A stretch of DNA of 64,000 nt from Holothuria scabra. Its lineage: Eukaryota > Echinodermata > Holothuroidea > Aspidochirotida > Holothuriidae. The stretch spans positions 9,445,547 to 9,509,546 of the forward strand of contig CM074193.1 in the NCBI GenBank assembly GCA_037179385.1, read 5' to 3'. This document shows positions 36,177 through 63,438 of this stretch, in pieces. Each line of letters begins with the position of its first letter. Positions within the stretch are counted from its first letter, which is position 1. The position numbers and the translations under genes were made by a program. The notes beneath the pieces were generated by a model, which was not told where the DNA came from, did not search any database, and worked only from the letters and a program-made list of their open reading frames with translations.

Positions 36177-38489
36177 TTAGAAACATACATTTTTGTTCTT
36201 CCCTTTTGTCTTTTTACGATACATGATTCCTTTCCGTGTAATTAAAGATATAAATTGCATGTTTCTTGGGGACAAAAGCGATGTGTAGATTGAAAGAGGT
36301 GTGTATTTATAGATTAACCTAATCGGTGCTAGCACTGTATGAGCAAGGTTTGGAGCAAATGTCGTAGTAAAGCAAGAGGCTACAATATTGTCAACCACTA
36401 TAGTCCCACTAAGTGTATACGGGCAATACGCCCCCTGATGAAGTTCGTATCGAACTGAAGTAACGGTATCTGAAATTAAGTTTTTCCCTTCAGCCGTATA
36501 TACAATGTCATTTATGTTAATTTCCTTTGCAGCTTTCATTACCTTCAAGGGTCCGACAGGGAGGCAGTGGTTTGGGGACACGAAGAGTGTTTTTTGCCTG
36601 GCGGTTTCGATTCTAAGGTACATTACGTCCACATGTTTGTCTGAGTGAGCCACGAAAAATATTTCCTCGAACTCTAAAGAAGACTCGCTATTAAGTGAAA
36701 GAACCCTATCGCCTACCTTAATCAAAGAAATTGGAACTTTGCCAGACCTTTCTTTTGTCACAAATGACTTGCTAGGAAAGCAGTTGCCTGAATCTGAAAT
36801 AAGTTTCATGATCATTTCCTTCTTTGAGTTTATTACAGACATAGCAACTTCGCTAAGCTCTTCATCATTTAGCATATTTTCAGGAGATAACTTATCTTTG
36901 ATTGCCTTAACGAGTTCTGTGGGCAATTCATTTTTCTCCAGTTTTTCTTTGATTTCCTTTAATTGACGTTTGCGCAATTTACGTAAAAAATCCTTTGCGT
37001 CATTTTCAGCAAAGTGAATAACTTCTTCTTTTGCTCGATTTTTTTTCTTCTGATGTTCTATTTGTTCTCTAATTCGTTTTTCCAGCTCTTGCTTTGACTT
37101 AAGTTTATCGGAGTATTTAGTCTGAATGGCAGACTCATAATTTCTCAAAAAGGTAGTTACTATATCCCTGATATCGTTTTCATAGACTTCCTCTAACTGA
37201 ATCATACCCATTAATTCCGCAATATCGTTTTCAGTAGGATATAAAGCGTTTTGAAATGATTTTAATTCTTCTTCCGAAGCTTCTTCAATAAGATCAAACA
37301 AATGGTTATTAATTATATTTTCAGCCCGAAGGAGGTTTTCTTTTCGCCTTTGGAGTTTTTGCTCATGAATCTGAGACTCTTTGATGTTAATGAATTCTTC
37401 GATGTTCTCTCTTATGACTCTAGGAGCCATTTTTTTCAAGTCAGCGATTGTAAAATCATAATTGTTGTTTTGCAACTTTTCTTGCAACAATAGATATTGT
37501 TTCTGGTTCAAGTCATTGTTTTGTTTTGCGAAGTTTAATTCTCTTAGACTTAGTCTTCCCATTAAACTGTGCAGTTCTGTGGTGAAGGTTTCTTCCTGCT
37601 TCATTAAGCTTTGCATTCTCATGTTGATCATATCCCTCTTACTAGCTAAGGTTGCTTTTGACAAGTCGCTAAATAATTTAGGGGAGATAAATTTAAGCCT
37701 TTTCTCTTTAAAATCATCCCGAATGTCTACAGGAATGTCATTTGAATTAAGTAGACCAGCTAACTTATCCCCATAACTATTCCAAATGTAGTCATTAATT
37801 TTGTCATCTAGGAATGCATTTGTTTCCATTATTTGTTTTCGTTGGAGTTCGAGAAACATTTTCTCAAGAGACATCCAGTGCCTCTGAAAACTTAACTGCC
37901 CTTTAGTTTGCCTCTCAGCCTTCAGGCTGCTAAGTTTTTGATCAATAACTAAGTTATTTTGTATGATTACATTCTTGACAATAGATTGAATATTTGGACA
38001 AATGTATTTGTTCCATAGATCAGCTTTTCTCATGATGTCTTCCAAGCAATTCATTTCCACTTTATCAAACTTCTTTCCTTCTTTAAGCTTTTGTAATTCT
38101 GCTTCGTCTGTCTTCTTAATGAAGTCGTGAAGAAAGGTGGTAGTGAGATTTATCGCACAGGTGTGGTCCTTTATTTGTTTGGCGTTTTCTTTGATCATCT
38201 CCTGGACGGCTTCGAATTGCTCATTTGTATATTTTGCTGAGCCAGCCTTTTGTTTAACAAAACTGCAAATAGCGGCTATTACCCAGTGGTGTTGTAATTC
38301 TTTGAAGTAATCCTGTTTGGGCTTGTTTTCGACAACAATGACCCTTCCAGACAATTTTTTTATTAGTTTTACAAGGTATGGTGGAATATTGTCCGGACTT
38401 AAATGTTCTGATAATGTGTCTGATTCCATCTGTGATCCCCGTGTAAGGACCAGGATTGCGTGTTGAAAAATTTCAGACCCAAAACGTTC
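36177..38489 (-). CDS. GIMAP C-terminal half, long helical linker and Hedgehog-type Hint (Hog) domain; last exon
   Basis: This is an uninterrupted 770-codon exon. Upstream of the first ATG (38429) the frame runs back 20 codons to a TTTTTAATTTCTAG acceptor, and those codons read ERFGSEIF then ILVLTRG, the standard GIMAP continuation to G4. The usual aspartate after TRx is replaced (TRGSQ). PPYLVKLI and RVIVVENK follow, as in GIMAP G5. Numbering from ATG 58865: GTPase end about 146-210; a K/E/Q/L-rich, probably coiled-coil region about 215-710; Hog domain 712-870. Hog hallmarks are GNCFPSKS (Cys715, the predicted nucleophile), KVGDRVL, LFVSPNHCLPV (His786; Ser where Hedgehog has Thr), GAYCPYTLSGTIVVD, and ASCF (Cys851) followed by LAH and APIRL. 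The C-terminal tail is basic. No signal peptide is seen, so Hedgehog-like secretion is not implied. A possible AATAAA on this strand lies about 0.6 kb past the stop. Confidence 0.9.
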   Translation of the reverse strand, partial: ERFGSEIFQHAILVLTRGSQMESDTLSEHLSPDNIPPYLVKLIKKLSGRVIVVENKPKQDYFKELQHHWVIAAICSFVKQKAGSAKYTNEQFEAVQEMIKENAKQIKDHTCAINLTTTFLHDFIKKTDEAELQKLKEGKKFDKVEMNCLEDIMRKADLWNKYICPNIQSIVKNVIIQNNLVIDQKLSSLKAERQTKGQLSFQRHWMSLEKMFLELQRKQIMETNAFLDDKINDYIWNSYGDKLAGLLNSNDIPVDIRDDFKEKRLKFISPKLFSDLSKATLASKRDMINMRMQSLMKQEETFTTELHSLMGRLSLRELNFAKQNNDLNQKQYLLLQEKLQNNNYDFTIADLKKMAPRVIRENIEEFINIKESQIHEQKLQRRKENLLRAENIINNHLFDLIEEASEEELKSFQNALYPTENDIAELMGMIQLEEVYENDIRDIVTTFLRNYESAIQTKYSDKLKSKQELEKRIREQIEHQKKKNRAKEEVIHFAENDAKDFLRKLRKRQLKEIKEKLEKNELPTELVKAIKDKLSPENMLNDEELSEVAMSVINSKKEMIMKLISDSGNCFPSKSFVTKERSGKVPISLIKVGDRVLSLNSESSLEFEEIFFVAHSDKHVDVMYLRIETARQKTLFVSPNHCLPVGPLKVMKAAKEININDIVYTAEGKNLISDTVTSVRYELHQGAYCPYTLSGTIVVDNIVASCFTTTFAPNLAHTVLAPIRLIYKYTPLSIYTSLLSPRNMQFISLITRKGIMYRKKTKGKNKNVCF

Positions 38490-39952
38490 CTAGAAATTAA
38501 AAAGCATAAAAACTGAGAGTAAACCAAATTAACTGTTTGAGCATATATAATTACCTGCTTAATATCCGTTTTACATTAAGATGGACCCATTCTTCGAGTG
38601 ACAGTGACATTTCCAGATGCACTTGAAAATAGCAAGTAGACAGACTTCTCTCCAAATGAAATCATTATTTAAAAAACAATTACCGGTTTCAGTTTTATGA
38701 CAATTCATAACAACAAAGAGATAAAGGATGTTTCCCTTCGAAGTGAAAGATTGATAATGAAGTGAAGTAACCTGCCTGCGGATTTTGGGCAGATTTCCAA
38801 ATCATTGCACCCCTAAGATATCGTAACCCATACCTTGCAAACATTAAATGAACGTTGTGGTGTAGTGCTCCATAGAAGTGGTAAACAAAACTTTTAATTG
38901 TATTGTAATTGTAGGTGATAAAACTTAACAATAGTTTGTCTTCATCAAAGTAAGAGTAAAGGGAAAGTTCGCCACCGTGCCGGTCAGTGCAGCAAAAGTA
39001 ACCCAGATGTTAATGCAACTATATAGGAGTCAATATATAAGTGGTACAATGTTATGAAAGATTTTTCCCTCTTTGGCAAGCAAAGTAAGAATAACGGAAG
39101 GTATTGCAAAAATCATCCCTCCCAAATTATCTATAGCGTTAACAATACCTTGGGGGAAACAGATTTCTCAATTTACCGATAAGCAAAATTTGACCAGGGA
39201 GCTGAAAGAGTTCTTTGTCTTGACAAAGATCCCCTATGGATAAATTCATAAAAACCGTATAAAAATACCTAATTGGGCATAAATTTTGACCTTTGGTCTC
39301 TGAACTCTACCTTATGAAGTTATCAGTAACCATGTATAAGTTTTCGTTGTCAGGCTTACTCATCCATCAAGTGTAAACCTGTTCTGACAACTATCGACAC
39401 AAGTTTTGACAAAAGTGTTGAGCAACTTATTGGACCTTTTTCACTACAGTGTGGCCTTTGCTTAACACACCAAACAAATAGCACCTCCTAAAAAATATTA
39501 TTAGTACAATATTTCCTCTCCTTTCAGAATAATCCGAGCGGTCTGGTGTTGGATTCATTTGGGAGAGCCACGAACCTTTACTTAAACCTTTTAGATTCGT
39601 TTGCCACCTGAAATTCTAAATCCTCATCTATGATGTTCATGGATTATGAGGGAGTTGAAGTGCACGATAAAAGTTAACAAAAAAAATGTTAGAGCTGCCG
39701 CTCACTGCCAGCGATGGCCAATAAAATTTGATCATCATTAGATTGCTAGGATTAAGTTCACTGGTCTTCCTGACATGAAGGGAGAGGAGCTCCCCGGATA
39801 ATATATAATATACATTTGCGATATGTTCTTGTGATCTAATTGCTCCACGAAGGAAATGAAATAATGGAGTTGATTTGAGAGATCAACTAGTTTTACTCAG
39901 GTGAGATTTGTCATAGATTTTCCATTTAGGGTAAATAGGATTAAACTCACAT

Positions 39953-40064
39953 GGGGCCCATTCCACAAAGAGTTACGCACAATCTTAAGTTTAATTCCCC
40001 ATATTTAAGTCATCAGTAAATCATACTTAAAATCGTAACTCTTTGTGGAACGTTAACGGGCCCC
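39953..40064. mobile_element. Palindromic MITE, GGGGCCC...TTCCACAAAGAGTTACG ends (copy 1)
   Basis: About 112 bp: GGGGCCCATTCCACAAAGAG at one side and CTCTTTGTGGAACGTTAACG then GGCCCC at the other. It is nearly one hairpin. A second copy lies at 53982-54091. Confidence 0.85.
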
Positions 40065-40809
40065 TGATATCTCATTGACTGTAAATTTGTGAGTTATTTG
40101 GCTGATAGCTAGGGCCATCGCCGGAAAACGTACTGCATGCAGGGCAAGGACTAAGGACTGAACGTATTTCCGGGGGGGGGGGGGGATGAAACCTGTGGTA
40201 CGGGCGATAATTTTACGGGACCGGCTGAGAACGTCATCTCAAATTGTGCACTAGGAAACAAAATCACTTATAAGCTTGTACACTACATGTCCATTTATAC
40301 TATTACTGTATGATGTTATCATATATCTCAGCCCCTTTCCCTGATTTTCTAGTTTGTTATGCCCATTATAATAAAAGGAACATTGACGAAGAGAAGGGGC
40401 AGGTTCCAAAATTTCTATTCATATGCATTTGCGTATTCTTTTCTGAGCTTTCTGCATCGGACCAAGTGAACCACTTGTTATATGAATTATTTATTACGTG
40501 TTGTTTATATGCTGAATGTACTTTTTTAATTAGGCAACTTCCAGGGGGGGGGGGGGGGTGCTGGGATATACTGCATTAAGGTAGCTAACGTTAAGCTTAA
40601 CCAGAATAAAAATGCATTGAGGTTTCAATGATTGCAATATAGTGCCATGTTATCTCATTTCTTTCTGTCACTGGCCAATTGCTATATCTTAATGTATTGG
40701 CAAAATACAGTTCTGCTTGCATTTGATGATGGGAAGCCATCATGCTTCTGCTTGTATGACATTCATCCAAGCTTCCTTCTCCAAAATATTCTACATACAA
40801 GTTGTTCTG

Positions 40810-41150
40810 AGTTTGGTCCTGGTGACCCCAGATGACCTTTGACCCCCAACAAAACGACTGGGCTCTTTCCTTGACAATAATGCATCTACATACTTAATAT
40901 GAAATTCATCAAAGCTTTCTACCTCAAGATATCGTGTTGACCAGGTTTTTTACAGTTAGACCCCTGGTGACCCCATATGACATTTGCCCCACTTAAAACA
41001 ACAGGGTCCTTTTCTCTCACTATGGGGCATCTATGTAAGGAGTTTGAGAATATTTGGACTTTAATTTCTTATTTCGTGTTAACGAGTAAAGTGTCATAAA
41101 CACACACACACTCACACATGCGCAGCACATACCCTACTGAAAGCATTACG
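40810..41150. repeat. TGACCTTTGACCCCC repeat units
   Basis: Two units with GGTGACCCCAGATGACCTTT, GATATCGTGTTGACCAGG and a terminal CA-rich run (41090-41120). Confidence 0.75.
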
Positions 41151-41829
41151 GGGCACACAGAGAACGGTTTCCCTTAAGGAAACGATCGTGATTTTTCTCC
41201 AGCCGGTTAAGTCATGCAGCAAGTGAATGCCGCGAGCGAGGTCGGGCTCTTGCATATCACGTGACACACCTCGTTGCCGTGTCCGAATTTTCGGGAAGCT
41301 ACGCCAGTTAATCGCTTCGCGTGAGCGACGAAACATGCGCGAGGCTTAAGCTCTCGAGAGCGGCCTGCACCCACCAAGGAATCGCTTACAGGTGCACACA
41401 CCCACACCTACACACACGCGCACACAGTCGTGTTTTTACACACAACTGAGGACTTCATTGTTATCTCCATTGTGTCTGCTTACTTAACCCTAACCTTCAC
41501 AATAGACTGTCTATTGTTAGACAACCGAGGACTTGGGGAAATCTATTGAATTTACTACCGAGGACCTGGAAGTCTATTGTTTAGGTCCTCTGTTTTACAC
41601 AAAGACAAAGCCACCTACACACACACACACACACCCATACATACACATACGCCATCTTGTTGCATAGGTTTCTCTTTCATTGAAATAAAAAAATGTTAGT
41701 GCTGATGTTTAATGTTGTTGAAGATATGTTTTAACTAGAAAGTCAAAAGGCTTAGTGATTTCTTGTCGCTGGAATGTCAGTCTGTTTGTTTTTGTTTTTT
41801 TTTTGCAAATTGATCAAACAAAGTATGAA

Positions 41830-44420
41830 TTGCAAGCTTCCTACATTGAGATATCATGTAAATCGGGTTCAGAGATTCGGACCCTTCGAAACCCGAGATG
41901 ACCTTTGCCCACCTGGTACTAGGGTTATGCTCACTAAATCGCATCCGCATAATATGTGTGAAATTTTACAGTATCCAAGTCTCCAACCATGAGCAATTGA
42001 GGAAATATGCTATTGAGACTTGTGACCCTAAATATTTGACCTCCATGAAAAATAAGAGACATATGCTCCTCACCATGGTGCATTCACATAATATGTATGA
42101 AATCTATCCAATCAAGGATTTTAGATTTTGAAGGCTGTTGACCCTAAATGACCTCTGAGATCCACCTAAAACAATAGGTTTCTCCCCTTTAATAAAACTT
42201 ATCCACATAACATGTATTCAGTCCGTTCAAGCTTCCCAACTTCAGATATCCTGTTAACAAGTTTTTTCAGACTTTAACGACTAGTGACTCCACATGACCT
42301 TTGAACTATGCCGAAAACTGCAGGGATCATTTAACCAATATGCATTATCTACCTGCCAAGCATGACGACCCTTAAAGTTGCCTTCATTAAGATACTGTGT
42401 AAACAAGTTTGTCAGATTTTGATCTCTGCTGGCCCCATTGAACTCCACAAAAAACAATAGGGATCAAATTCTAAATATGAGCAACGCACAAACCATATAC
42501 AATATTGGTAACACTTCCTCTTCTTGAGATGTGTTCGCAAACAATTTCTAAGGAATTCACCATTTGACATTACCTGACCCCATATAACTTTTGACATAGG
42601 GGAAGGCGGGGTACTGGCGAAAGCGGGAAATGGCGAACGCGGGGCAATGGCGAACACCGCCATATCTCGTTCCTGAGAATAGACGGCTCTATTTCACTTA
42701 CCCCTCATATTAGCTCTCGGTCTATGAATACAACCAACACCCAATTCGGACAACATTTCTGCTTCAACTCGAAAAAAAAAGCAAAAAATGTGAGTTCTAC
42801 CCTGAATGTGAGTTGTCCCTTAAAGACGTACCTTCTTTTGGGAGCAGAACTCCTTCGGGGGTTTGGTTTCCCCCCTGGCTCTTTGCTAGAGAGTCGGGGG
42901 ACTTTTGAAAATAAAAAGAGTTCTACCCCTTTGACTTTTCAACATACGTGTTCTGAAATTAACATTAAGGGTACGTATACTGTGAAATATTTATTTACCG
43001 AAACATCTAAATAACGTCGATAGTGTTTGCTCTCAAATGGTATGCCTTCAAAACCCCACAAGCTGGTGTTAAAAACAAGTGTGATTAAACCATTAACATG
43101 TGTGAGGGGTAATGGCGAACGTGTGTTCGGCATTACCCCATACCTAAGAATTGTGTATTTTCAGTGTGAGTTTTCAGTGTCAATGAGAACCTCCAGTGGA
43201 AGATTGAGCGACGTGTATGAAGTGTAAAAGTTGGGCACACGAAAACTGCACCGATAAACAGGCTAGTTCGAAGACTACACGTGGGACTAGTGCATACAGT
43301 CACATCACATTTAGTTGTGGTGTTTTTGTGAGATTTGAATAAGCCCAACTCAAAAGTATGTTAACTTTGACATGCAGCTAACTTTAGTTGAATTTAAGTA
43401 GATTTGTTGTAAATAAACTGATCGCATATGTTTACCTTTTGCTCCGTTCGGAATTACCCGCAAAGCGAGGGGTAATGCCGAACGAGGTTCATTTTGCATT
43501 TTTAGTTGTTACGTAACATATGAAGTTGTTCCAAGAGCGGTTGCTGAAACAAAATTTGTATTTCATATAAGTTTTCTGTTAAGACATTTGTCTCATCTAA
43601 ATGTTTTTTTTTTCTCTTATTCCCGTTTAGTAAAATGTGTTCGCCATTACCCCACCTTCCTCTACACGAAAATCGAGAGAGATCATTTACTTAATACGGC
43701 AAACCAACACACCAAATACCAGCATAGTCACTGTCACCTTCTTTGAGATAACGTGTTTACAAGGTTTCAACATTTTGACCTCTCATGACCCCACATTACC
43801 TTTGACATCCCTCAAAACAATAGGCCCGCACACGAAATATGAATTAAGTCACACCTACCTTTCCTGAGATACTGTGTTTTACATGCAACATCCAAGAAAT
43901 TTACCATTTGACCTCTCGTGACCCCAAATGACCTTTGACCTCCACGAAAATCAAGAGGGACCATCTACTCAATGCGGCCAACCCACACACCAAATACAAG
44001 CATTGTCACTTTTACCTTCCTTGAGGTTACACGTTTAAAAAGATTTGACAATTTGCCTTCTCATGACCCAAATGACCTATGAATCTAACAAATCAGTAAA
44101 GATCAACTACTCAATGTGGGCAACCCATACACCCTCAGAATAGCATAGTCACATGTAAATTTCCTGAAATACCGTATTTACAAGGTTTTAACATTTTGAC
44201 CTCTCGTGACCCCATGTGGCCTTAGACCTCCACTAAAAACAAAGGGGATCATTCACTGAATATGCTCAACCCACCCACCAAATATGAAATTAGCCTTACT
44301 TACCCTTCTTGACATATTGTGTTTAAAAGGGAACGTCATGCACACACATACACCTGCACACAGGGTTCACCATCGTAGGATTCCTTGCCTTCCTTCGGCA
44401 AGGAGTAAAAAAAGTGCAGA
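41830..44420. repeat. TGACCT-type repeat array, split by a TIR transposon
   Basis: Ten or so degenerate units of about 120-160 bp carry GAGATACTGTGTTTACAAGG, TTGACCTCTCGTGACCCC, AAATGACCTTTGACCTCC, AACAATAGGG and ACCCACACACCAAATA. The array ends with a CA-rich stretch and TCCTTGCCTTCCTTCGGCAA. A 1,064-bp element interrupts it at 42599-43662. Confidence 0.82.
42599..43662. mobile_element. TIR transposon, 1,064 bp, TA target duplication
   Basis: The ends are GGGGAAGGCGGGGTACTGGC and its inverse GCCATTACCCCACCTTCCTC, about 23-bp TIRs. TA flanks both sides, and the surrounding TGACCT repeat unit is continuous without the insert. The GGTAATGCCGAACG motif recurs inside in both orientations. No transposase; mariner-like by TSD. 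Confidence 0.85.
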
Positions 44421-44769
44421 CACAGATACCAACAAAATACAAAACTGAGAAAAGATTGAACTAATTGGCACAGTATGAGGGATCAACTACTCAATGCGGG
44501 CAACCCGAGAAGACTAGAGTGTACATATAGGTCTGCAATGCGAATTGCACCCTTTTACTTTATATTTCCACAGAGAAAAATTTTGACAAAAGATGCCATA
44601 TTCTACACATTTTATGAAAGAATTAAGCACCGTGGTACCAGTAACGCCTATTGGTGGTATAGATCTGGAAAAACTGAATATAATCTTAACATCCTTTTCC
44701 CCCATTTCGGCAGCTCTTAATGGTAATTCAAATAGACGGGCCTTTTTCAATTGAGTTTATAGCGATAGA

Positions 44770-46936
44770 AGCAGGAGTTGCGCCAGCGAGGGGGGGGGGC
44801 ATGCCCCCCGTCGGGGAACACTGTCCCCCCCCCCCTCCCGTCGGGGAAGGTCGGCGGTTTCGTCGGGGAGACCTAAAAAATGAAAAAAGGATATAAAAAA
44901 CCTGCAAGGACTGAAATTACAGGATGGGTGATCTGGAAGGTATTTTTTCTCCTTTTGCAACGCTATTTTAATACATATCGGCATCGATTTTCAACTACTT
45001 CTCAAGTTCATAGCTCTGTTATACCTCATTCCATGTACCTCGTCCCATTTTCAATCAAAGCGCGCAAGATCGCCCATAACCGAGACTTGTGTTGCAGACC
45101 AGGGAACTGGAAGTTTCACATGCAGAGGTAACCAAGGGTGGCACCAGCGGGAGACAAGGGGTCATTACCCCGTCGGGGAAGGGAAGGGCCTTCCTCTATC
45201 CTTGAGAGGATCCAATTTCGTCGGGGAGCCTTCAACTATAGACCTACGATAAAAATGTAAGCCCGATAAACGTCAGATCTTCTTGATATGCTTTACCAGA
45301 TTTCCTTACAAAACGGACGAGAAGTTAGAAAATATAGTGCCCAAAGGTTTGCAATTTGGAATGCCTCTACAGCCGAATTCGAGCAACGGTAATGAAAATC
45401 GGCCAGACCATTTTCTGTTATACATAATGATAAACAGAAGTGTGAGAAATGTCTCCTGATAAGTCTGACTGAAAATACATTTGAAGCCACCTTGTTGTAA
45501 CGTGACATATTTTCAAAGACGTTGGAAGTAATATCATTTACTATCGGGGGTTCGACAGTCACATGGAAAATTATAGACCTCGCAGTTGGATACAACGAGA
45601 AGTCTCATAGAGTCAAAACATTGGTATTTTTTCAATTCGGTTGCAGAGTTTCCCCCGAAAAAAAGACAAGACCATTTCATCTAATTGTAGCAGTACTTTT
45701 TCTCTGGTAATTTTCTGACCACACAGCAAATTGATTTTTTCTATTGCCGGAATGTGAAACTTCCATAAATAAAGACTGCTTCATTTCTGGTTACAAGTCT
45801 TGGAAATGCCATTTCCGGTTGTCATAGGGATTACATTTTTTAATTTTTTCCCCTTTGCTCCGCGCCAACTCATGATGGCTCCCCGCTTTGATAGTGTTTT
45901 TGTCGCCGATTACTTAACAGCGCAATGCATGCTTGCAAATTATTTTTCGTTTGGGGGCAATACTATGAAGTGAAAATTTTATAGCGAAAGAAAGCTAAAA
46001 ATCAATTACGAGACCGGGAAATGGCATTTCCGGCTGTCTGGGGTCTTCAATTTTTCAAAAATTTCTGTGTTTATTTAGTCGTTCTGGCAGCATTACATTT
46101 TTTCAGACAAAGAAGGCAATTCTGCCTCTGTCAATTCCGTCAATATATAAAATATAAAATATATGGAAAACCAAACTTTTTCCGAGAGGAAAATTACGGG
46201 GGCATCAATCTCCATGATGTTATTTAGTAACCCTAACAAAAGTGCAAATCACCCCTACTTGATTTTTCTCTTAAGAAGGTCAGATTTTTCCATAAAATCT
46301 GTCATAAAATCAAAGTTCCGTCACTGTAAACTTCAGGTTTTCAAAAATGGCAAAATATTCCATTTTCGATGATTACTCCGAACAATAAAAAACCCAAGTC
46401 AACTCTCTTAATCATTCCGACAATTGCTCTTGACAGCAATTTTTCATTGCAACCCTACTCCCAAAACAATTTTTTTCGTAAAATTTTCAGCTTTATTCAA
46501 AATGATAAGCTCTTATCTTTCAAAAAAGGGAAAAACTTTTTTGGAAAATTTCAAGTTTCGTGTGAAGCTTTACTACCTAGGCCTAGTATGATGCAATGCG
46601 TAACCCCCAAAGAATTTCAGCTGCCAACTATGTAACGTTTTTGATTTTGCCCATATGAATTACAGATTCTTCAACAAACACCCCAACTTTTTTATTTGTC
46701 CCTACAAAAGCCAAATTTCGTTCAAAAATGTTTTCTTCTAAACAAACTCCAAATTTTTGAGTATTTGCTGAAAAAAAAGCCAAAAAATTTCGGTGCGCTA
46801 CGCACGCCTTGAATTTTGCAAAGTCATATCCTACCGGGACTAACTCATCGCCTTTGTTGGGGACTCGAAATGTTGGCCCCCCTGTCGGGGAGCTCGGCCC
46901 TCTTGTCGGGAAAATCCTGGCGCCACCCCTGTGTAG
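44770..46936 (+). mobile_element. hAT-like repeat, CAGGGGTGGCGCCAG family (copy 3), most complete
   Basis: The ends are CAGGAGTTGCGCCAGCGAGG and CCTGGCGCCACCCCTG. The flanks GATAGAAG and TGTAGAAA match at five consecutive positions, as an eroded 8-bp duplication would. About 2.17 kb, noncoding. It carries GTCGGGGAAGG motifs at both ends and an internal copy of the left end at 45.13 kb. Confidence 0.75.
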
Positions 46937-47389
46937 AAATGTTTAGTCAGTCGAGCAATTTCACTGTCATTATTTGATTCTCCTTATGATGTTAGCGAGG
47001 CTTACAGTGCGTTAACATTACGGTTAGACATCTTACATAATGTTTTACCTAAGGTTAGACGAAGAAGGCACAAACCACGCCTTAGATATATAAGGGTATC
47101 AGCACGGCTGTAGTCGAGTCCGGACTCAGACTCGTTATATCAAAATTTGAAGGACTCGGTTGAGGTCCCCTCAGTGGCGTGGGGAGCAATATGAAAATGT
47201 GTGTGTGTGGAGGGGGGGGGGGGGGCGGAACGATTTTGGACCGTGCACCTCAACCTACCCCATTGCCTTTAATTAAGGTACACCTTTGATGGCAAATCTT
47301 TTCCTTTTTCTACGAGCAAGGTTTTGTTTTTAACGTGAAGAATTCTGACTTCTTTCAAGTGTGAACACTGCTGCATTAGGAGCGTATTC

Positions 47390-48400: not shown

Positions 48401-48512
48401 TGTATTGGAGACAGCTTTGGACTCTGGGTTTCCTGTAAGGAGATTTAAAGAGTTGGGGGATTACTGAAAAATGTGCACTTCCTTCAAATATTGGTGGTAA
48501 ATCTGAGAATGA

Positions 48513-48597
48513 TTGCTTTTTTTAAAGTTGTCCCGACTCTCTGGCAAAGAGCCGTTCGGCGAAAACAAACTATTAGCTCCTTCCCGAAGAAGCTAGA
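48513..48597 (-). repeat. Conserved SINE-like core, copy 3
   Basis: The minus strand reads AGCTTCTTCGGGAAGGAGCT (hairpin), then TTTTCGCCGAACGGC, then TCTTTGCCAGAGAGTCGGGA. It matches the cores at 59.7 and 61.9 kb over about 80 bp, but its upstream sequence is different. Confidence 0.8.
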
Positions 48598-49951
48598 TTG
48601 CACGACGAATGATTCGTTGTTGCTGCGAGCTGACCTACGAGCTGACACTCGACGATGAAATTTCAAAGTGTCCCAAACTTTGTTGTCATTTTTAGGCAAA
48701 ATATTTCAAAATCAAGGGCTTTCTTTGAAGAAATTGGTAACTCTGTGAAAGACATTTTACAAAAATATCGAAATAGCTGCCGGTGTCTCCTGATGATGTG
48801 GTTTCACATATGGTAAATATCCGATTTTCTCAGCTCTAGAGCTCGGAAAAGTTTACAATATGAGTGAGAACTAATGCATTTAATATCACACTTTGTACTT
48901 TTTGCGATTTGGAAACCTTGATTTGGCACGTTACTTGTAAAAATTTCGCTTTTTCACCTTATAGTTCAATTCGAGCACATGAATTTATGGTAATTGACGT
49001 GGAAATTAATCTGAAACCAAAACTCTCAATTGGCCTAGCTCTTTGACTAACAGCTAATTCAAAGAATTCAGAGTATCAAAGCTTATATCACACAACATGA
49101 ACTGATGAGGATAAATTTCAGACAATTGTAGGACTGGCCTTATGTAAGAAGGTTAGGAGAACTGGTACTGTTTTGGGTGAGAGAAATAGGGCCTTAAAGT
49201 GAAAAGGAGTTTTCTGACTCAGCCTGAACGGTAAATACAAATATTATGGAGAAAAGTAAATAGTACCGTGCCGTAGGAGAAAGAAACACAATGTTAGAAC
49301 AGGTATTCGCACCCTCGACCCTGTCACCCCTAGTGATACAGCCTAGTAGGCAGCGGGCCGTACCCGAAAAAGTGCTTTCGTTTTTAACTTTCGTGACGCA
49401 CATCTGAGGGTCGGCATAAAAATTACCCACGAAGGTCAATTTTAACCTTTTGAACATAATATCAATTACCACAAGCGAACGAATTGGCCTACGAAGAGAA
49501 ATTTGAGGTTAAATTGTTGGCTTTTTTTGGCCAACATTCATTGTAGATACTAGTTCCACGAATTTTCTGACACGTACAAAATCTGTACATGCCGGGTATA
49601 GTGCACAGTGCAGTGGTCAGTGAAATTGATAGGGATAAACTTTTATGTCAATTAATTGACGGGAGGGGGGAAAAGGGGAGTAGGACGACTTTCCCCTCAT
49701 CTGAGGAAAGGTTGAATAAATCAGGAACAGGAACGAGAGATGAAAGCGAAGGGATAGCGAAGAAGGAAAATGAAATAGGACAAAACAAGAATAAGAATTT
49801 GGAATAGAAAAGAGGAAGAAAATAAACACACATGACATGAAAAACCAAGAAACAGAGAGAAGAGATGCGTTCAGTAAGAAGACCAATAGATGATTCACAT
49901 GATATTGTTTAGCCAAGTGTGGTTTGCAGTTGAGTTATGAGAGAGTAAATA

Positions 49952-50440
49952 ACCGACGACATGGCCGTCAAGTGGTTAAAGCATCCGACTTCAGGCGCGG
50001 ATTAAGGGGTGGGGGCTTACGGCCCCAGCCCTCCCTTTTTCGCCACATCAACAATAAAACATATGAAAAATTAGCAGTGCAGCTCCCTCTCACCCCTTTT
50101 TTCTCTTAGGTCAGCCCCCTTTTTTGAATGTGCGGATCCGCGCCTGGACTAGCTTGCAGTTGGGAGGTCGGAAGTTCGAGTACTATTGGCCGGGTCATAC
50201 TGAAGACTGTAAAAAAACACCCACTGCCATTGTACCTGGTGCTCAGCATAAGGCAATTGAGTGGGAAAAACAAGCCAGTTAGTCACAAGTGGAAAAGCTA
50301 GTCCGTGGCGGCTTGACATAAACCAATTGGTTAGAAACTGGCCATATGGGTCGTCACGTAAAACTCCGTCCATCTTACTAACTTGAGAGGATAGGCCTAA
50401 ATGGACAGGCTTTACGACCAAGCAGAACTTAATTCCCATT
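49952..50440 (+). mobile_element. tRNA-derived SINE, interrupted by a small MITE
   Basis: A tRNA-like head (CATGGCCGTCAAGTGG A-box, AGCATCCGACT) is split and resumes at 50147 with GCAGTTGGGAGGTCGGAAG and a B-box-like GAAGTTCGAGTACT. The body (CATACTGAAGACTGTAAAAA, CATTGTACCTGGTGCTCAGC) matches the body of the 57.2-kb copy. Confidence 0.75.
49992..50146. mobile_element. Small MITE with CAGGCGCGGAT ends
   Basis: CAGGCGCGGATTAAGG on the left and CGGATCCGCGCCTG on the right give an 11-12-bp inverted repeat. The 155-bp insert divides the tRNA-like head of the SINE. The target duplication is not clear. Confidence 0.75.
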
Positions 50441-50454
50441 GAGATCTTTTGTCC

Positions 50455-51160
50455 AAATCAACAAAAGGTTTCAACGGTCTCCAAATGGTAAAGGGTTTTC
50501 AAAAGGGTTTGGTTTATGAAAAGGGTAATTTTGTAAATCCCTTTGAGTTTGGACCAATTTCCATCATCTACCAAAGGGACTGCCCAAATGCATAAGGTAT
50601 TTACAAAAGGTATCACTAATTGAAACCCTTTGGGTTCAAAGGGTCTAACCCAAAAGGGTTCCAAATGGAATTTTCAGCTGGGCTGCCAAAAAACTTTGAC
50701 TATACCTAAAGCTGTAAAGTATAACCTTTTCTAGTGAGCACGCCTGCATGATTTGAACCAGCGTCGAATCTCCATGAAGCCTTGGTCGTTCACTCCAAGT
50801 ATAAGTTCAAACTATATGATCGATCATCAAAGAACCAATCTCAATTTCCTGCGAGTAACTTAGCATCATGTAGTACGTAGAACTGATCGCCAGCATCTCT
50901 ACCAGGAAAAAAGGGAACCGGATCGTGGGCTAAAGTTTACAAAATTTGAAAATCCGACCGGGGTGAGAGCTGTATGAATATATTATCTTCTGTCAGGTGG
51001 AGAGGGGCACAAGATTCCTGGAGATATTATCACAACAACCAGTGGTTCGAACCTGCCACTCATTCATATGCTTGATATTTTGCATGTATTTTATAGGTAA
51101 CCATTCCATTTGGAACCCTTTGAGCACAATTGTTTTGAAATGGTAGGCCTACCTTTCGAA
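50455..51160. repeat. CCCTTTGG/AAAGGGTT-rich inverted repeat region
   Basis: CCAAATGG, AAAGGGTT and their inverses occur repeatedly at 50455-50670. An inverted CCATTTGGAACCCTTTGAG recurs at 51105. These may be the two ends of an eroded TIR element; boundaries are not resolved. Confidence 0.45.
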
Positions 51161-51179
51161 AAGTAAAAAGAAAAATACT

Positions 51180-51735
51180 TTTTTAAGCATAGGGGTAGGA
51201 AGCGGGGCTGGGGAAGAAAGCCTCCCCGGCCCCCAGTGAAAAATGAGGGGCGGAAGCAAGATTCCGCTCCCCCACTTCCCGTGTCAGAAACCCCTTCAAA
51301 ATCTCAAAAAACCGCGAAATTTCCAGCGCGCTTTGCTCGCCGCATTATGCAGCATAAGTACACTAGTTCTCCCTGATAGACCAGTTTGGTAAACTTTCCT
51401 GAGCTCTGGACATATCAAAATCGGATATTTACCATTTGTGTGACACCACATCATTAAGAAACCCCGGCAGCTATATTGCTATTTTTGTGACCTGTCTTTC
51501 ATAAAATTCCAATTTTTCTACAATTAAAATTCTTGATTTTGAAATATTTTGTCTAAAAGGACAACAAATTTGGGAAACTTTTGAAATGTCATCGGGGTCT
51601 GCGGGGTCTCGATTTTTCAAAATTTTGTATACGCTCCGCGCCAATTGAAGATAGTCTTTCGAGAAAGACTTCTTATTCCAGGCAGGGAAGCTTTGGCCTA
51701 CCGTAGTCAAATGTTCTCATACACACCGCATGCGG
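51180..51735 (-). repeat. Repeat family with GCGCG-rich motifs (inverted fragment)
   Basis: TACGCTCCGCGCCAATTGAAG, TTCCAGGCAGGGAAGC and TACCGTAGTCAAATGTTCTC are reverse complements of sequence in the 26.7-kb copy (27345-27440). Confidence 0.68.
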
Positions 51736-53439
51736 GACATCGAATCCAGAGTAGCGCTTGCAGTGACCTTCCGTACATCTTTGTCGCACCCGCACCAAGT
51801 TCAAACGAGTTTCAAGGATTGATTTGTATCTGACTATTGACGGAATCCAATTCAGTCATAATTAGATACCAAATGATCATCGGTCCAACTCTAGTAAAGT
51901 TATGCTCAACTGAGACTAAGATTAAAAATGCGGAAATAAAATTAAATTTTTTTCAAGTTGATATGTTTAAAAAAAAACATATCAGGTACCGTCATTTCAA
52001 AAAAAAAAAAAAAAAAGGCGTACGGGAAGAGGCGGATCCTGTTTGCGCGAACTGAATATTTTTCAAGTCCTATTTTGCCCGGCCGCATGTCAACACGGTC
52101 CGCTGCAGGCCGAACTGACTAGCTACTACATATACTACCCCCTTGCCCTAAAATACATGTAAGTGTCACTGCCCTGAAATAAGCACTTCCCCTGATCTGG
52201 GAGGAGTGCAGTCCCCCTATCCCCACCTGAAAGGTCTACGCGCCTAATAGCATGAAAGATGCCAAGGTCTGCTTGCGATTTTCTATTGAAAAACCAGCCC
52301 CTGTCTAAAGCTATCGGCCATGTCATGACACCAAGTCTCCAGGAGCAGGAATTTCTGATGCGATTTTCTGCCAGAAAGATCAAAATTTTAATACATGGCT
52401 ACTTTGTCGAGTGTCGCAACAAGCATTTCATTGGGAAAGGGCTGATCGCTTTTACAAAATGTGGTCAGTGTACCATATTCAGTTTGGCACTAGTACTGAA
52501 CTCGGGGGCTGATATTGGGACCAGAAAATTTAGTACACGAATTCCGATATTTTTCGGAAGGGAAACCGTTCCCAGCCGCTAATAACAGTTCGACCACCAA
52601 ATTTTAAGTAAGTTTTTAGCGGTTTAGGATTTTTAGATAGCATGTGAGTTATGGCTAAGCCGAATGAAAGCTACAACTATTCCCTAATAACTTGAGAACC
52701 AACACACCCCAGATGCCGGTGCCTATTAGAACCTATTACACGAAATACAGCTTGGTGACATTCTCGCCCGTATTCGTATTGTTAACCTTTCAGATTTCGT
52801 CGTTCCTCGATACAAAAATGATACTAGATGGGTTGAAGGGTATTATTCTTTTTTCAGAGATCACAGTGACGCAGATTATACAATTTGGATCGGTATCCAG
52901 CTCGAGTTACTCATTCGCAGTTAACGTTACGCGTGAAACCGACGTAGCAGGGACATATACAGCTCCTCGTTCGCGAAAAAGTGTCCTTTTTCTTTCCACA
53001 TCTTTTTACCGTTTTTTATCCCACGTACCCAAAAAAAGCATTAAAATTTGTTTAATTTTTCAAAAATTTACCATTAAAGCCCATTTCAGATAATTAAAGT
53101 GCCTTAAGAACATGATTAGAGGCTGCAGCTGTAGTTTTAGTACTGTTAGAGGAAAAGTTTACTTAAAACGTGGAAGTTGTGTGTCTTTCTCACCTTCGCC
53201 AGATTTTGAATTTAAAGGGATATTTTTACTTATTTTTTCTTGATCCATAGGCCAAACGGATCGCTTGTGGTAATTGCATGGGTTATTACTTCATCTTTAA
53301 TCATCGATTCGTATTTTTCCAATCAGACCCGCCGAAGTGCGTCACGAAGTAACACGAAAAAGCAGGACAGATTTTGGTCTATAGCTAGCATGAAGATCAG
53401 CGCGCTTGTCGGTCGACTGATTTGAAATAATATAAATAG

Positions 53440-53720
53440 GCCTACTGTCTAATAGCACAATCGTGTTAAATATAGATGTAGGTATACGTAGATACGTAAA
53501 CCAACAGCCAAGTTTTCACACATACATATAAATGAACGCTTGCATACGCATAGTATGCTTTTTTTTCGTAAAGGCTTATACCCGTACGTATACACTCCTG
53601 TGTACACGTATACATACATATAGAGCACCCTAATCTTATACTTTCAAATAGGTATGTACGCGCGTGCTTATATGGGCATCCTTAACTCTAACCGTAACCT
53701 TAACCCTACTACTTTGCTTG
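53440..53720. repeat. ACGTATAC-type and CCCTAA-like low-complexity sequence
   Basis: Alternating CGTATACACTCC, ACACGTATACATACATA and CTAACCGTAACCTTAACCC blocks resemble the 1.8-2.6-kb region and look like another copy of that repeat. Confidence 0.55.
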
Positions 53721-53981
53721 TGTATTCACGTATGACATAAGTTCTGGTCACGTAAACGAAATTAGAGCCCAATATGTTTCCTATTTATGTTCAAAAGAAG
53801 CATAAGAAACGTAAATATGGTACTGGCCCACAACGCACTGGAAAGGCCTAGGTTGACATGCCTTTTGTGATCCAAAAGTAAACTGAAGAATTTTTGGTAT
53901 TTCCCATTCACGGGTAACAAAAGTCGCCGTGAGCGGCGTGAATCAATGTGCTTGTCCGCTAAGCGGACGTGTACTTCTCCT

Positions 53982-54091
53982 GGGGCACGTTCCACAAAGA
54001 GCTACGCACAATCTTAAGTATGATTTACTGTTGACATAAGTATGGGGAATCAAACTTAAGATTGTGCGTAACTCTTCGTGGAACGGGCCCC
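53982..54091. mobile_element. Palindromic MITE, same family (copy 2)
   Basis: GGGGCACGTTCCACAAAGAG on the left and CTCTTCGTGGAACGGGCCCC on the right; the middle is also self-complementary (ATCTTAAGTATGATTTACTG region). It lies in the GIMAP-Hog intron. Confidence 0.85.
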
Positions 54092-54099
54092 TGTACCTC

Positions 54100-57000
54100 A
54101 AGCAAGTTGGGTGCGGCACTCCTAATACCAACCCATATAGTAGGCGTTCTTGTGTTGTTTCCCTGTGATGCCCACCCATCACACCATTGCATTATAGCTT
54201 CCACTGTAGCTAATATGTCGTTGAGATTATACGGATTGGCGTGGTGTAGGGGGAGGGGAGGGAGAGGGGGATGATTTCGTAGATTTATCATTCAGGAAAG
54301 GTGTTCGCGAAAAATTTTTTATTTTCTAAGACCAGCAGACCCGATTTTTGGGGTATCAATATTCAAACAATACAAAATTAACGATAAGTTGACCAATCTT
54401 TTAAGAGTCTGGGCAATGGTTATGAGGGACATGCCCCCTTTCCAAAAAGTGTTGTGATATATCCTCCCTTCCCCCAGGATTTCCCACCTATGCCTGCAGG
54501 AGTCGCCTAGACTTCTGTTGATGCCAAGAATTAACCAGAAAGCACAAAGACCTATTGATTTCTTGTCGATCTTGGGAATTATTAGGTTAGTTAGTTAGCT
54601 AGATGAGGTTCTCTGTTTCTTACCATCTGCTTTAATTTCCGATAATTGCATGATGGCATCCGAGTCGTGCAAACGCACTCGATATTTTAAAAAAATAATT
54701 ACTCTATCATGGATCATTCTACAGACTTCATTTTACCACCAAAAAATGTTTGTTTATATTCAAAAATATCAAAAAAATGCGACCACAAAATGCAAAAATG
54801 TCCCAAAATTTTCAAAAAATAAAAAAGGATAGGTAGAAATGGCCCACCCTACTCAAATTTTATTTGTAGTTATTTTACGACCTCTTAAAACAATATTAGG
54901 TGTCGAAACTTGAGTAGAGTTAGACTTTTCAGAAATATTTAGCGATATTTGTGCAAAAATAGGTCAATAATCGGCAAAAATAGACATTTTCGGGTCAAAA
55001 AACATGCTATCAGGAAAAATATTTACTCGGCAACCCTTGATGCCATTTGATCCGAATAAACGCCAAAGAGTTTGTGTAAAGCATCCTTATAAATTATCAA
55101 TTTGCGCCCCAAACGCCCCTTTCAGCCACCAGTTCAGCCCCAAAACACCGCATTAGCTATCAATTACAACGCTTATACCACTCCAAATCCTATTCCACTT
55201 ACGGCACCTAAAAGCTACCATCCCAAAACAGGCTGAGTCATAGCAGCTCACAGACAAGCCTGCTGTGAGCCAGCTATTGTGTTTGCGTATCAACTACTAC
55301 ATTCAAATATAAAAAAATCTTTCTTTCGCTACTATAAATAATAGTTAATACTATTAGTCTTTCAACGGCTTCACTGTTGAACAGCCCACGTTTCCAACTA
55401 AGTTACATGGCATATACCTACGGTATGCAATAGCCTGCCAACTTTCTTGCGAATCTCATTTACGACCACCAAATATGACGTCACGACAAAAATTAAAATA
55501 CTAAATTATATCTCGCGTAATAGGTAATATTTATGCATCGAACGTATGGCCTGGTACAAATTTTCCACCTACAAAAGCTAATTAGGTTGTTCACCGTTCG
55601 TTGTATCAGTTGCATGTACCAAAATACACTATTCATACTTGTTTCGTGCACCACGTGACCATCTCATGTTTACTAATTCGTCCCTCAAGATGTGGGATTC
55701 CTGTAAATGGAAGCTGGACGATGGTTTGCAGACTCTCTATATTATACTGTTTAGAGAGGTGTTTTATTGAATTGAGAGAGCGCAATCTTTCGGCTACTAC
55801 AGAGTCTGCTCCGCAGGCTACTCACAGACGGAGAGAGCAGTTCAACCCAAGGTCAAATGACGCTAATCTCCAAGGGAGTACATGTGCCCTCAAGCGTGCA
55901 GTCAAATGAAAAAAAAAAGATTTTAAATGTTAACAAAGATAATCAAAACTTAATTATGAAACGTTTTCCCCGAAAGGATAATTAAAGGCACATTCTCGGA
56001 CACAAAATTCATTAACTTCAAGATATGCAGATAGGTTTCTTTAAATGAGGAGAAAACTTCATCTCAATAGCATGCAGCGTTTCGAAGATACATATTTATA
56101 AAGTAATGCAACTTTTTCTTTTGATTTGGTGCATCATGTAAATCTGTGACGTCATTGGGGCTCATTAATTTGACGTAACATTAAATTTATTTTTAATTTT
56201 GATGTCACTGCAGGGACTATAAACCAACAGTGATAGTTGTACTCTACGCATGGTGAAGGGTAATGCTTGATCTACAGGCAAAGATATTTAAGCATCCCTA
56301 CATTATAAAAATCAAGGAAAAAAGGACCACATTACATAACTTTTTTGTGGCTTTGTTGTAGAGCAGCGGTATTTTTTAACAAAAGTAACCAATGTTTAAA
56401 ATGAGATATGTTAAGTTAGGAAAAGTAATTGCTACAAGGTTTCAAGGACACGGTGAGGAATATTTTTTCTCTGGCTAAAAAACCACCAGAAGGCCTTTTA
56501 ACCACTGCCGAGGGAATGATGCCTTCCCCCAAAGTGCTAGTGCATATGGCTTTCTTTTGTAAGCTTTCTATCAAACAGAATAAAAAGTTTTCAGGGTTTT
56601 TTCTTCAATTGCAAGCAATACTATTTTTCCAGAAACAGAGCACACAATTGCCCACGTCATCGGTAATCTCATCTGGCTGAGTCATCAAAACCAATTTTCG
56701 ATGAAGCCGGTCTTTGGCTTCAGACAGTGAACAATATGTTGTCGCGTAGTACTTGTGCACCAATGTTAAGAAAGTCGATGAGTCACAGTGTACGCCAACA
56801 CTAAAATGCACGATCCTACACATGTTTTTCAAAAGTCTTGTCTGCATGAGTACATAGGTTTTCCCTTTCGGGAAACCAAAAAGTGCCATAGCTCAGCCAT
56901 TTTCCAGCCGATTTCAAAACAACTTTGTGTCAAATGAAAAACAAAAGTGTCTTGAACAATAAAATGCACAAAAATAAGAAATAAAAATAGAAACTGGTAG

Positions 57001-57190
57001 TGTTTTTTTAAAAAAGGAAAAAAAAAATCAATTTTCATCTACTTTGCATATTTGCATACATAATGAGCTCAAAAATTCCACAAAAAATAAATCAAAATCT
57101 CCTATCTGTGCTTTTTGTTTTCGATGTAGGGTTTTTACAGAGATTATTCTTTTAATTCTAGCAAAATTAAGATATTGAAAGTATTTACTC
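54100..57190. other. No gene recognised (intronic)
   Basis: AT-rich sequence within the inferred GIMAP-Hog intron. Short frames at 55601-55909 and 56605-56889 (minus) have no recognisable domain and no supporting splice structure. Confidence 0.4.
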
Positions 57191-57194
57191 TCAT

Positions 57195-57420
57195 TTAAAA
57201 ATTTACTGTAAGCGGATAAGCGTTAAGAAAATCAGACTTGGGCCCTTTTCCAGTTGTTCTCACTGGCTGGCTTCCCCTATTCCATTGATTATGCCGAACA
57301 CCAAGCACAATGACAGTAGGTACAATTTTTAAAGTCGTCGGTGTGGCCCGGCCCGGAGTCGAACTCCAGACCTTCCGGCTGCAAGTCGGATGCTTTAGCC
57401 ACCTGACCATGCAGTCGGGC
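57195..57420 (-). mobile_element. tRNA-derived SINE (tRNA-Cys-like head)
   Basis: The minus strand holds ACTGCATGGTCAGGTGGCTA (A-box), AGCATCCGACTTGCAGCCGG (anticodon-arm-like, loop TTGCAGC with a possible GCA anticodon) and TGGAGTTCGACTCCGG (B-box). A body of about 140 nt follows (CATTGTGCTTGGTGTTCGGC). The head is not a foldable complete tRNA, and the body is shared with 50.15-50.44 kb, so it is a SINE. Confidence 0.8.
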
Positions 57421-57539
57421 GCATTAGTTTGATAGCACTCAACAACACACCAATATGAATGGGTTAAACAGTGTACAGCTAAAAACCCAAAGAGCCAAAA
57501 GGCTTAGTGGTTCATTGCCAATCCTAAGAATTTTTTGGA

Positions 57540-58240
57540 AATTTGCTCTTTGACAACTGGTGATCTCAAATGAAGATCTTGAAAATTCTAAGGAAATTCG
57601 CTCTCCCCAAACTGGTGACCGCAGATGACGATCTTAGGAATTGTTGGGAGAGTTTGCAATCGGGTTTTGTTATTCCAGATGGACGATGTTTGACCTCTCG
57701 TGACCTGGCATTACCTCTGATCTCTACTAGAACAATGAGGTCTCCCTGGTGTGTGCGTACAATCCATAAAAGTTTATGCACTTTTACCACCGGTGACTTC
57801 ACATGACCTTTGGCCTCCACCAGAAACGGTACGAAGGTAGGAATTTTTGTGACATTTCTTAAATTGTAAGTGGCTTTCCAAATTTTGTGCAAATATTTGC
57901 TAAATTGTTCCCAATAAATTACTGAATTTTCCTCAAATTCTTATCAAAATCTTAGATTTTGAGGAGGATTTTGAGGTCAGTGTGAACCTGCTCCCGCCTC
58001 GTACACCACTCTTTGCAGTAAAACCTTTGGTTACCTCAAATAATCTTTGACCACCACCAGCAACAATACGGCTCCTTATGCTAAAATGAAAAATCTACAT
58101 ACCAAATATATAAAGTGTCGAACCAATCTATCTTGAGTTGCCGTGTTTAGAGCGAGTGTCACAATATCACAAACAGATATCCAAGACATCACCATCTCAT
58201 AGATTCTATGCCTGTTATAGGCAAGGAATCAGAAATAATA
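57540..58240. repeat. TGACCT-type repeat array just downstream of the GIMAP exon
   Basis: CTGGTGATCTCAAATGA, GACCTCTCGTGACCTGGC, CGGTGACTTCACATGACCTT and ACATCACCATCTCATAGATT with GGCAAGGAATCAG belong to the same family as the 33-, 34- and 42-44-kb arrays, including its characteristic end. Confidence 0.75.
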
Positions 58241-58430
58241 TTGCACTCTCTGCTATGTGACATCATACGCATGAAGTCTATAGATGAAACTGTCTACCAC
58301 ATTTGCGTATTGATCTTTTTATACCGACTCAATGTTCTACCCAAGAGTCGGCCGATTTTGGAACTTCTTAACATTTCGATGTTTCGATAATGGAATCAGA
58401 AAAAAAAAACTCTCGGAAGTTAAAATTTAC

Positions 58431-58865
58431 CTCTATTTTGTCGATAGATTCACAATCCTCTTTAGTAAAGGGCGCATCAATGCGGGAAACGATAACGAAT
58501 ACGTCAATTCCATCAGGAAAGTCTATTACAGCTTTTGCAATTTCCAGTAAGACGCTTTGATTGTCCATTAACTTGCCTTCGGTGTCGAATAATCCAGGGG
58601 TATCCATGACATGCAACACCAATTGTCCAATGTACACCCTTTCTAGGTGATTCGTTTTAGTGCACGATTTTAGGAGGTTAGTGGACGTTGTAAAAGCTTT
58701 ACTTCGCCCTAGAATCGTATTTCCGGTTGAACTCTTACCGCTCCCCGTTTTACCTACTAGCACTATGGATATATCCATGCTATTACTCGCACACCCTTCA
58801 ATGGAGTCTTCTTGTATTGAAAAAGTCGCACGTTTCTTCAAACGTCTTAATTTTGTTGACATCAT
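58431..58865 (-). CDS. GIMAP/AIG1-type GTPase, N-terminal exon of a GIMAP-coiled coil-Hog gene
   Basis: This exon encodes the first 145 residues of an AIG1/GIMAP GTPase. GIMAPs are septin-related, membrane-associated GTPases, best known from lymphocyte survival and invertebrate immune expansions. Visible motifs are the P-loop GKTGSGKS (residues 38-45), a switch-I threonine stretch AFTTST, and G3 DTPG (88-91) followed by LFDTEG. The conserved GIMAP helix ending in CESIDKIE stops exactly at GAG|GTAAAT, a good splice donor; the 20 codons read past it are intronic and not GIMAP-like. I chose the ATG at 58865 (a second ATG follows directly). However, the frame stays open to 58901, where a pyrimidine-rich TTTTTTTTTAG acceptor lies, so an upstream exon is possible. 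The G4 and G5 half is absent here and is found at 38.5 kb. GIMAP identity is near certain; the exact 5' end is not. Confidence 0.9.
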
Positions 58866-59724: not shown

Positions 59725-59807
59725 TAGTTTTTCATAAGTCCTCCCGATCCTCTGGCAAATGGCCGTTCGGCGAAACCAACTTTTAACTGCTTCCCTAAGA
59801 AGCTTTA
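59725..59807 (-). repeat. Conserved SINE-like core, copy 2
   Basis: The minus strand reads AGCTTCTTAGGGAAGCAGTT (hairpin), then GGTTTCGCCGAACGGCC, then ATTTGCCAGAGGATCGGGAG and GACTTATGAAAAA. Its upstream 150 bp has no U2 head. Confidence 0.82.
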
Positions 59808-61910: not shown

Positions 61911-61912
61911 AG

Positions 61913-63418: not shown

Positions 63419-63420
63419 AC

Positions 63421-63438
63421 TGGTGGCAGCGGTGGGAT
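63421..63438 (+). other. Primer-binding site complementary to tRNA-Leu
   Basis: TGGTGGCAGCGGTGGGAT is complementary, over 18 nt including CCA, to the 3' end of animal tRNA-Leu (AAG/TAG type), as I know that sequence. It sits 2 nt after a CA and defines the LTR boundary. Confidence 0.85.

What the first reader, a model, noticed from the sequence alone, without database searches (positions are those of the whole stretch)
36177..58865. A GIMAP GTPase fused to a Hedgehog-type autoprocessing (Hog) domain
Two minus-strand exons join in phase into a ~915-residue protein: complete AIG1/GIMAP GTPase, ~500 residues of charged helix, then a Hint domain with the specific Hedgehog signature (GNCFP, SPNH, GAYxPxTxxGTIVVD, ASCF...LAHxxxAPIRL). 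Hedgehog Hint domains cleave themselves from the N-terminal partner and transfer cholesterol. Here the partner is an immune-type GTPase without a signal peptide. This suggests an intracellular GTPase-coiled coil module released, or lipid-modified, by self-cleavage before Cys715. I do not know of a well-described system of this kind.
Basis: partly seen in the sequence, partly recalled or inferred. Interest (0 to 1): 0.93.

Follow-up and report, generated by a model that had tools for sequence, protein, structure and literature searches.

The report
CARD–GIMAP GTPase with Hedgehog self-processing domain
A gene from an animal that is probably a sea cucumber joins an immune-type GTPase, and likely a caspase-recruitment domain encoded just outside the window, to a Hedgehog-like domain that is predicted to cut the protein and would attach a sterol to the released part; it belongs to a family of related genes in the same genome that all carry histidine where Hedgehog uses aspartate.

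Summary
Two minus-strand exons join in phase 0 into a 915-residue AIG1 GTPase–helical region–Hint protein. The junction is conserved in three paralogues, whose introns are only 0.2–3.4 kb, and two full-length Holothuria leucospilota proteins have the same domain order. The genome search found nine Hint exons of this type (AIG1 seen with eight), one Hedgehog-like gene and a five-copy cluster of other Hog domains.

A compact paralogue has CARD, AIG1 and Hint within 8.5 kb.

All 11 sequences compared keep the Hint cysteine, SxxH motif and distal cysteine, and carry His at the position of Hedgehog's general base Asp46. Engineered D46H in fly Hedgehog retains cholesterol transfer and accepts more sterols. 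I therefore expect self-cleavage before Cys715 and probable sterol attachment, anchoring an intracellular CARD–GIMAP. No activity was tested.

The architecture is not new: AIG1–Hint is in print for a mycorrhizal fungus, a coral and a snail, and CARD–AIG1–HINT for amphioxus. New here are the probable echinoderm family and its invariant His46.

The parts
58431..58901 (-).
   Evidence: (AIG1 8e-22)
38490..58430 (-). Intron of 19,941 bp, phase 0, GT..AG; same site as in paralogues L017, L019, L022
36177..38489 (-). Long last exon, 770 codons plus stop: AIG1 C-half, helical region, Hint, C-terminal tail
38187..38486 (-). C-terminal half of AIG1 (contains LTRG and VIVVEN)
   Evidence: (1.6e-12)
36783..38186 (-). 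Charged helical region, residues 247-714; 24% identical to P0001, against 49-60% for the AIG1 parts and the Hint domain
   Evidence: helical in the low-confidence P0001 model
36366..36782 (-). [not shown]
36780..36782 (-). Cys715, predicted nucleophile (Hint position 1)
36645..36647 (-). His760, at Hint position 46, where Hedgehog has the general base Asp (Drosophila D303)
36567..36578 (-). Ser783-Pro-Asn-His786, counterpart of the Hedgehog TxxH motif (positions 69 and 72)
36372..36374 (-). Cys851, counterpart of Drosophila C400 (ASCF)
36180..36365 (-). C-terminal tail in the place of the sterol/adduct recognition region; contains LAPIRL, as LAPMRL in fly Hedgehog; predicted helices, low confidence
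58902..64000 (-). Part inside the window of a predicted 10.6-kb intron leading to an upstream CARD exon at L029:5520-5789 (-), i.e. 5,520-5,789 bases past the window end
   Evidence: (CARD 6.4e-6)

Best explanation
The gene encodes an AIG1 (GIMAP) GTPase, a long helical region and a C-terminal Hedgehog-type Hint domain, likely preceded by a CARD, and the Hint domain is predicted to cleave the protein before Cys715 and would likely pass a sterol to the new C-terminus, which would anchor the CARD-GIMAP part to membranes inside the cell. Shown by sequence: domain order, splice phases, full conservation of the Hint active-site residues in the 11 sequences compared, and His at the general-base position 46. 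Inferred: (1) Cys715 attacks the Asn714 carbonyl to form a thioester, with Ser783/His786 in the role of TxxH; (2) His760 replaces the Hedgehog Asp as general base, as the engineered D46H variant of fly Hedgehog does, and would accept a wider range of sterols; (3) a sterol resolves the thioester and tethers the GTPase, doing the job of the C-terminal hydrophobic anchors of many GIMAPs (recalled); (4) the CARD and the helical region allow assembly and death-domain-type immune signalling.
For: Joined AIG1 and Hint; conserved junction in L017, L019, L022; full-length homologues P0001 and P0002. In all 11 GIMAP-type Hints aligned, C1, H46, S69, H72 and the distal Cys are invariant, among 21 invariant of 183 gapless columns; His makes up 2.4% of residues there. 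C715-H760-S783-H786 have the same spacing (0, 45, 68, 71) as C258-D303-T326-H329. Hint and AIG1 are far more conserved than the helical region. Codon-position differences 0.47/0.34/0.66 over 36 paralogue pairs indicate protein-level constraint. D303H keeps structure and cholesterol transfer and widens substrates (PMC9163320, passages). CARD exons: window gene and L017. Sea cucumbers make lathosterol and a 14alpha-methyl sterol rather than cholesterol (PMC9236903, passages).
Against: No assay, transcript or protein evidence. The tail is modelled at pLDDT about 31-51 and lacks the HWY of the Hedgehog sterol-recognition region (named in PMC9163320; present in L001). The residue before the Cys is Asn here and variable in the family (N, S, K, G, E, Q), not the Hedgehog Gly. 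His46 also occurs in an unrelated metagenomic Hog (P0017) and in all five C4 copies, so it may be the general Hog state and not a special adaptation. Asp-to-His in fly Hh was tested in the fly protein, not with this tail. No signal peptide means no access to the route Hedgehog uses. Species is inferred.
Confidence: 0.5

Rival explanations
1. The Hint domain cleaves, but no sterol is attached: water or a small thiol resolves the thioester, so the domain works as a self-protease that frees the CARD-GIMAP part, perhaps on a signal.
For: Active-site residues are conserved but the Hedgehog Asp46 is absent and the tail differs from the Hedgehog SRR; the scissile flank is variable; D303 mutants of fly Hh cleave more efficiently with DTT (PMC9163320).
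Against: His46 is invariant in 11 of 11 rows, and D46H keeps cholesterol transfer in fly Hh; the LxPxR stretch of the tail, LAPMR in fly Hedgehog, is kept in 9 of 11 rows (L020 and L023 differ).
Confidence: 0.25
2. The Hint domain is no longer catalytic and serves as a folded module for binding or assembly.
For: No activity has been shown; some paralogues are altered around the domain (L023 tail; L022 with AIG1 and Hint in separate pieces).
Against: Catalytic residues are invariant in 11 of 11 while only 21 of 183 columns are.
Confidence: 0.12
3. The two exons belong to different genes and the fusion is an artefact of reading.
For: The intron is 19.9 kb long and no transcript was examined.
Against: The AIG1 profile continues at 112/110 across the junction; no other AIG1 copy in the window; the same junction with a 195-bp intron in L019, which matches the annotated protein P0002 at 49% over its full length.
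Confidence: 0.03

Closest known systems
CARD+AIG1+HINT proteins of amphioxus (PMC12373286, passages)
   Same: Same three domains (N-terminal CARD, AIG1, C-terminal HINT), in a deuterostome; several genes
   Different: The paper calls the recurrent CARD/HINT architectures unique to amphioxus among animals and does not discuss Hint chemistry in the passages seen; here an animal that is probably a sea cucumber has them. Amphioxus sequences were not compared.
AIG1-Hint proteins of Acropora millepora (PMC3723955) and Biomphalaria glabrata (PMC7053062)
   Same: AIG1 with C-terminal Hint; no signal peptide in the snail genes
   Different: The passages seen name no CARD in the same protein and no active-site analysis
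Glomus mosseae GmGIN1 (PMC2362128, passages)
   Same: AIG1-like GTPase plus bona fide Hog domain, no signal peptide
   Different: Fungus; no CARD mentioned in the passages seen
Hedgehog C-terminal domain (1AT0; D46H variant 6TYY)
   Same: Fold, C1, TxxH-type motif, distal Cys, spacing
   Different: No Hedge domain found and no obvious signal peptide; His46 for Asp46, Ser69 for Thr69; different tail
Holothuria leucospilota proteins P0001 and P0002 (named GTPase IMAP family member 7 and 4)
   Same: Full-length homologues, 35% over 97% and 29% over 95%
   Different: Names do not mention Hint; P0001's N-terminal stretch matches CARD only weakly (E 0.11, below cut-off)

Membership tests
GIMAP/AIG1 GTPase | AIG1 domain over its length with P-loop and DTPG | tested here: met
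   profile 2-112 and 110-207; GKTGSGKSS, DTPG, LTRG
Hog (Hint + SRR/ARR) domain | Hint fold with catalytic Cys and TxxH-type motif | tested here: met
   Ser replaces Thr in the motif
Hog (Hint + SRR/ARR) domain | Sterol/adduct recognition region after Hint | tested here: inconclusive
   LAPIRL stretch and predicted helices at low confidence
Hedgehog protein | Asp at Hint position 46 as general base | tested here: not met
   His760
Hedgehog protein | N-terminal Hedge signalling domain | tested here: not met
   Pfam scans of the three coding exons list AIG1, Hint and CARD, no Hedge domain; exons further upstream were not read
Hedgehog protein | Signal peptide | tested here: inconclusive
   No strongly hydrophobic N-terminal stretch in the AIG1 exon by Kyte-Doolittle; no signal-peptide predictor was at hand, the CARD exon was not scored and exons upstream of it are not excluded
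CARD+AIG1+HINT protein | CARD spliced to the AIG1 exon | tested here: inconclusive
   CARD above cut-off in an exon with matching splice phase and in L017; no transcript
CARD+AIG1+HINT protein | Autoprocessing activity | not testable with these tools
   needs recombinant protein
Intein | C-terminal splice junction followed by a C-extein | not tested
   No specific test; the protein ends 62 residues after the Hint core, and 6TYY/1AT0 rank above inteins

The most novel reading that the evidence does not exclude
A cytosolic immune GTPase that is covalently sterolated by its own Hog domain: CARD-GIMAP-Hog proteins use a natural His46, the change that chemists engineered into fly Hedgehog and that widened its sterol range, and so can couple release and membrane tethering of a CARD-GIMAP signalling module to whatever sterols the animal has, here one that likely makes little or no cholesterol.
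Probability: 0.3. Interest if true: 0.88.

Novelty: new member of a known kind. Interest (0 to 1): 0.6.

Why it matters
Covalent ligation to cholesterol is described as singular to Hedgehog (abstract of PMC7242414, seen in the listing). A family of intracellular immune GTPases with an apparently intact Hog domain would extend that chemistry to the cytosol and to innate immunity. The invariant His46 links to an existing enzymology result (D46H) and gives a direct test with non-cholesterol sterols. It also puts the CARD–AIG1–HINT architecture in an animal that is probably an echinoderm, against the statement that such architectures are unique to amphioxus among animals (PMC12373286).

Tried and rejected
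Chance or artefact of joining: rejected. A second GIMAP exon inside the intron: none found by tblastn. Pfam scans of 10 larger open frames, five in the intron and five upstream of the AIG1 exon, gave nothing above cut-off. Ten other open frames gave reverse transcriptase in 4 of 10, two of them above cut-off, and one TAFA match below cut-off.

Whole-protein model of P0001: mean pLDDT 52, and its fold search gave no match at E <= 0.001; not used. IMG/VR and GTDB genome scans with the Hint alignment: 34 and 9 pattern matches, none confirmed. Two later protein searches listed only P0017 and P0002 itself and missed P0001, so the absence of further homologues there means little; the first scored only the 7987 candidates sharing most words. 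Amphioxus, coral, snail and Glomus sequences were not fetched, so whether they share His46 is untested. In a preprint on the Holothuria glaberrima genome a search of the text gave no occurrence of GIMAP or AIG1. A tree with P0017 put that long branch next to P0001; it was rebuilt without it (the 11 GIMAP-type Hints on one side of a branch, support 86/90, which is moderate).

Results against or missing: the AIG1 C-half in L016 is below Pfam's cut-off (23.7 against 27 bits), and L023 showed no AIG1 in the stretch fetched. AIG1 N-half exons were found for 4 of 9 genes (window, L017, L019, L022) and CARD exons for 2 of 9 (window, L017); for the other five (L016, L018, L020, L021, L023) about 7 kb upstream was read without an AIG1 N-half, and nothing further. 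The local CARD profile listed nothing at E <= 1 in 7 of the 8 paralogue loci searched, and in L017 only a weak hit (0.035) that Pfam then confirmed. The genome search scores only its best candidates, so 15 Hint matches is a lower bound.
Full report
Observation. The minus-strand exons 58865..58431 and 38489..36177 join in phase 0 with GT..AG ends into 915 residues. AIG1 is split across the junction at profile 112/110, and a Hint domain lies in the last exon. The longest frame in 500 base shuffles of the last exon is 225 codons against 770. No other AIG1 or Hint copy was found in the window.

Independent support for the fusion. Holothuria leucospilota P0001 (996 aa, 35% identity over 97%) and P0002 (878 aa, 29% over 95%) are single proteins with AIG1 and Hint. 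In the window's own genome (G000, 1.19 Gb, 31 contigs, unnamed) a Pfam Hint search gave 15 matches, a lower bound: one best match with Hedgehog features (L001), nine of GIMAP type including the window's, and five in a cluster on contig C4 (types assigned by me; L001's N-terminal part was not examined). Of the nine GIMAP-type genes, seven carry the AIG1 C-half and Hint in one exon (window; L016, below cut-off; L017–L021), L022 has AIG1 in separate pieces, and L023 showed Hint only. Where the AIG1 N-half exon was found (window, L017, L019, L022), the intron sits at the same phase-0 place after a Glu codon, with 19,941, 3402, 195 and 618 bp. L019 is 49% identical to P0002 over its full length.

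The gene is longer than reported. The AIG1-N exon is open to a stop that coincides with a T-rich acceptor, 58902/58901. About 5.5 kb beyond the window end, on the same strand, L029:5520-5789 encodes 90 residues that match CARD at 6.4e-6, 26.5 bits over a 23.9 cut-off, ending in a phase-0 donor. It was found with a profile of the N-terminus of P0001 and the matching part of P0008. Paralogue L017 has CARD (9.8e-9), AIG1-N (8.8e-32), AIG1-C and Hint on one strand within 8.5 kb, with the same phase between CARD and AIG1 exons. The predicted window protein is then 1017 residues if the first Met of the CARD exon is used; further upstream exons are not excluded.

What this predicts. In fly Hedgehog D303 is the general base; D303H keeps structure, pKa and cholesterol transfer, with more than 200-fold better use of coprostanol (PMC9163320, passages; the primary paper was not read). 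Sea cucumbers make lathosterol and a 14α-methyl sterol, lack a cholesterol-biosynthetic pathway and take cholesterol from food (PMC9236903, passages). That the window comes from a sea cucumber is inferred from its nearest homologues. Self-cleavage is the best-supported step, sterol attachment the next, and anchoring and CARD signalling are inference.

Known art. AIG1–Hog in Glomus GmGIN1 (PMC2362128, passages), four AIG1–Hint sequences in the Acropora transcriptome (PMC3723955, passage), AIG1 with C-terminal Hint in Biomphalaria (PMC7053062, passages), and CARD+AIG1+HINT in amphioxus, where the recurrent architectures with CARD and HINT are called unique among animals and the triple is otherwise found in a few fungi (PMC12373286, passages). 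None of the passages seen on AIG1–Hint proteins tests processing or reports the residue at position 46; paper searches were made, limited to open PMC papers. D46H itself is in print as an engineered variant.

Noticed in passing
G000 contig C4, L011-L015 / L024-L028 (about 31.09-31.58 Mb): Five similar ~220-aa Hint exons in a half-megabase cluster with C1, His46, an HxxH-type motif and no distal Cys; a separate Hog family whose N-terminal partner was not identified.
   Followed up: partly
L001:1501-2157: The genome's best Hint match looks like true Hedgehog (Asp46, Thr69) but has Ala where fly Hedgehog has the distal Cys400.
   Followed up: partly
61945-62132: U2 snRNA match on the minus strand (55.6 bits, over cut-off 46), inside the predicted CARD-to-AIG1 intron.
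   Followed up: no
9964-10821, 10825-11244, 16760-17413, 23018-23710: Reverse transcriptase fragments of retroelements; the first and last are above Pfam's cut-off, the middle two below.
   Followed up: no
P0008: Holothuria leucospilota protein with CARD, a DED just under cut-off, and the AIG1 N-half, ending two residues past the exon boundary where the window's intron lies: probably a gene model cut short at that intron.
   Followed up: partly
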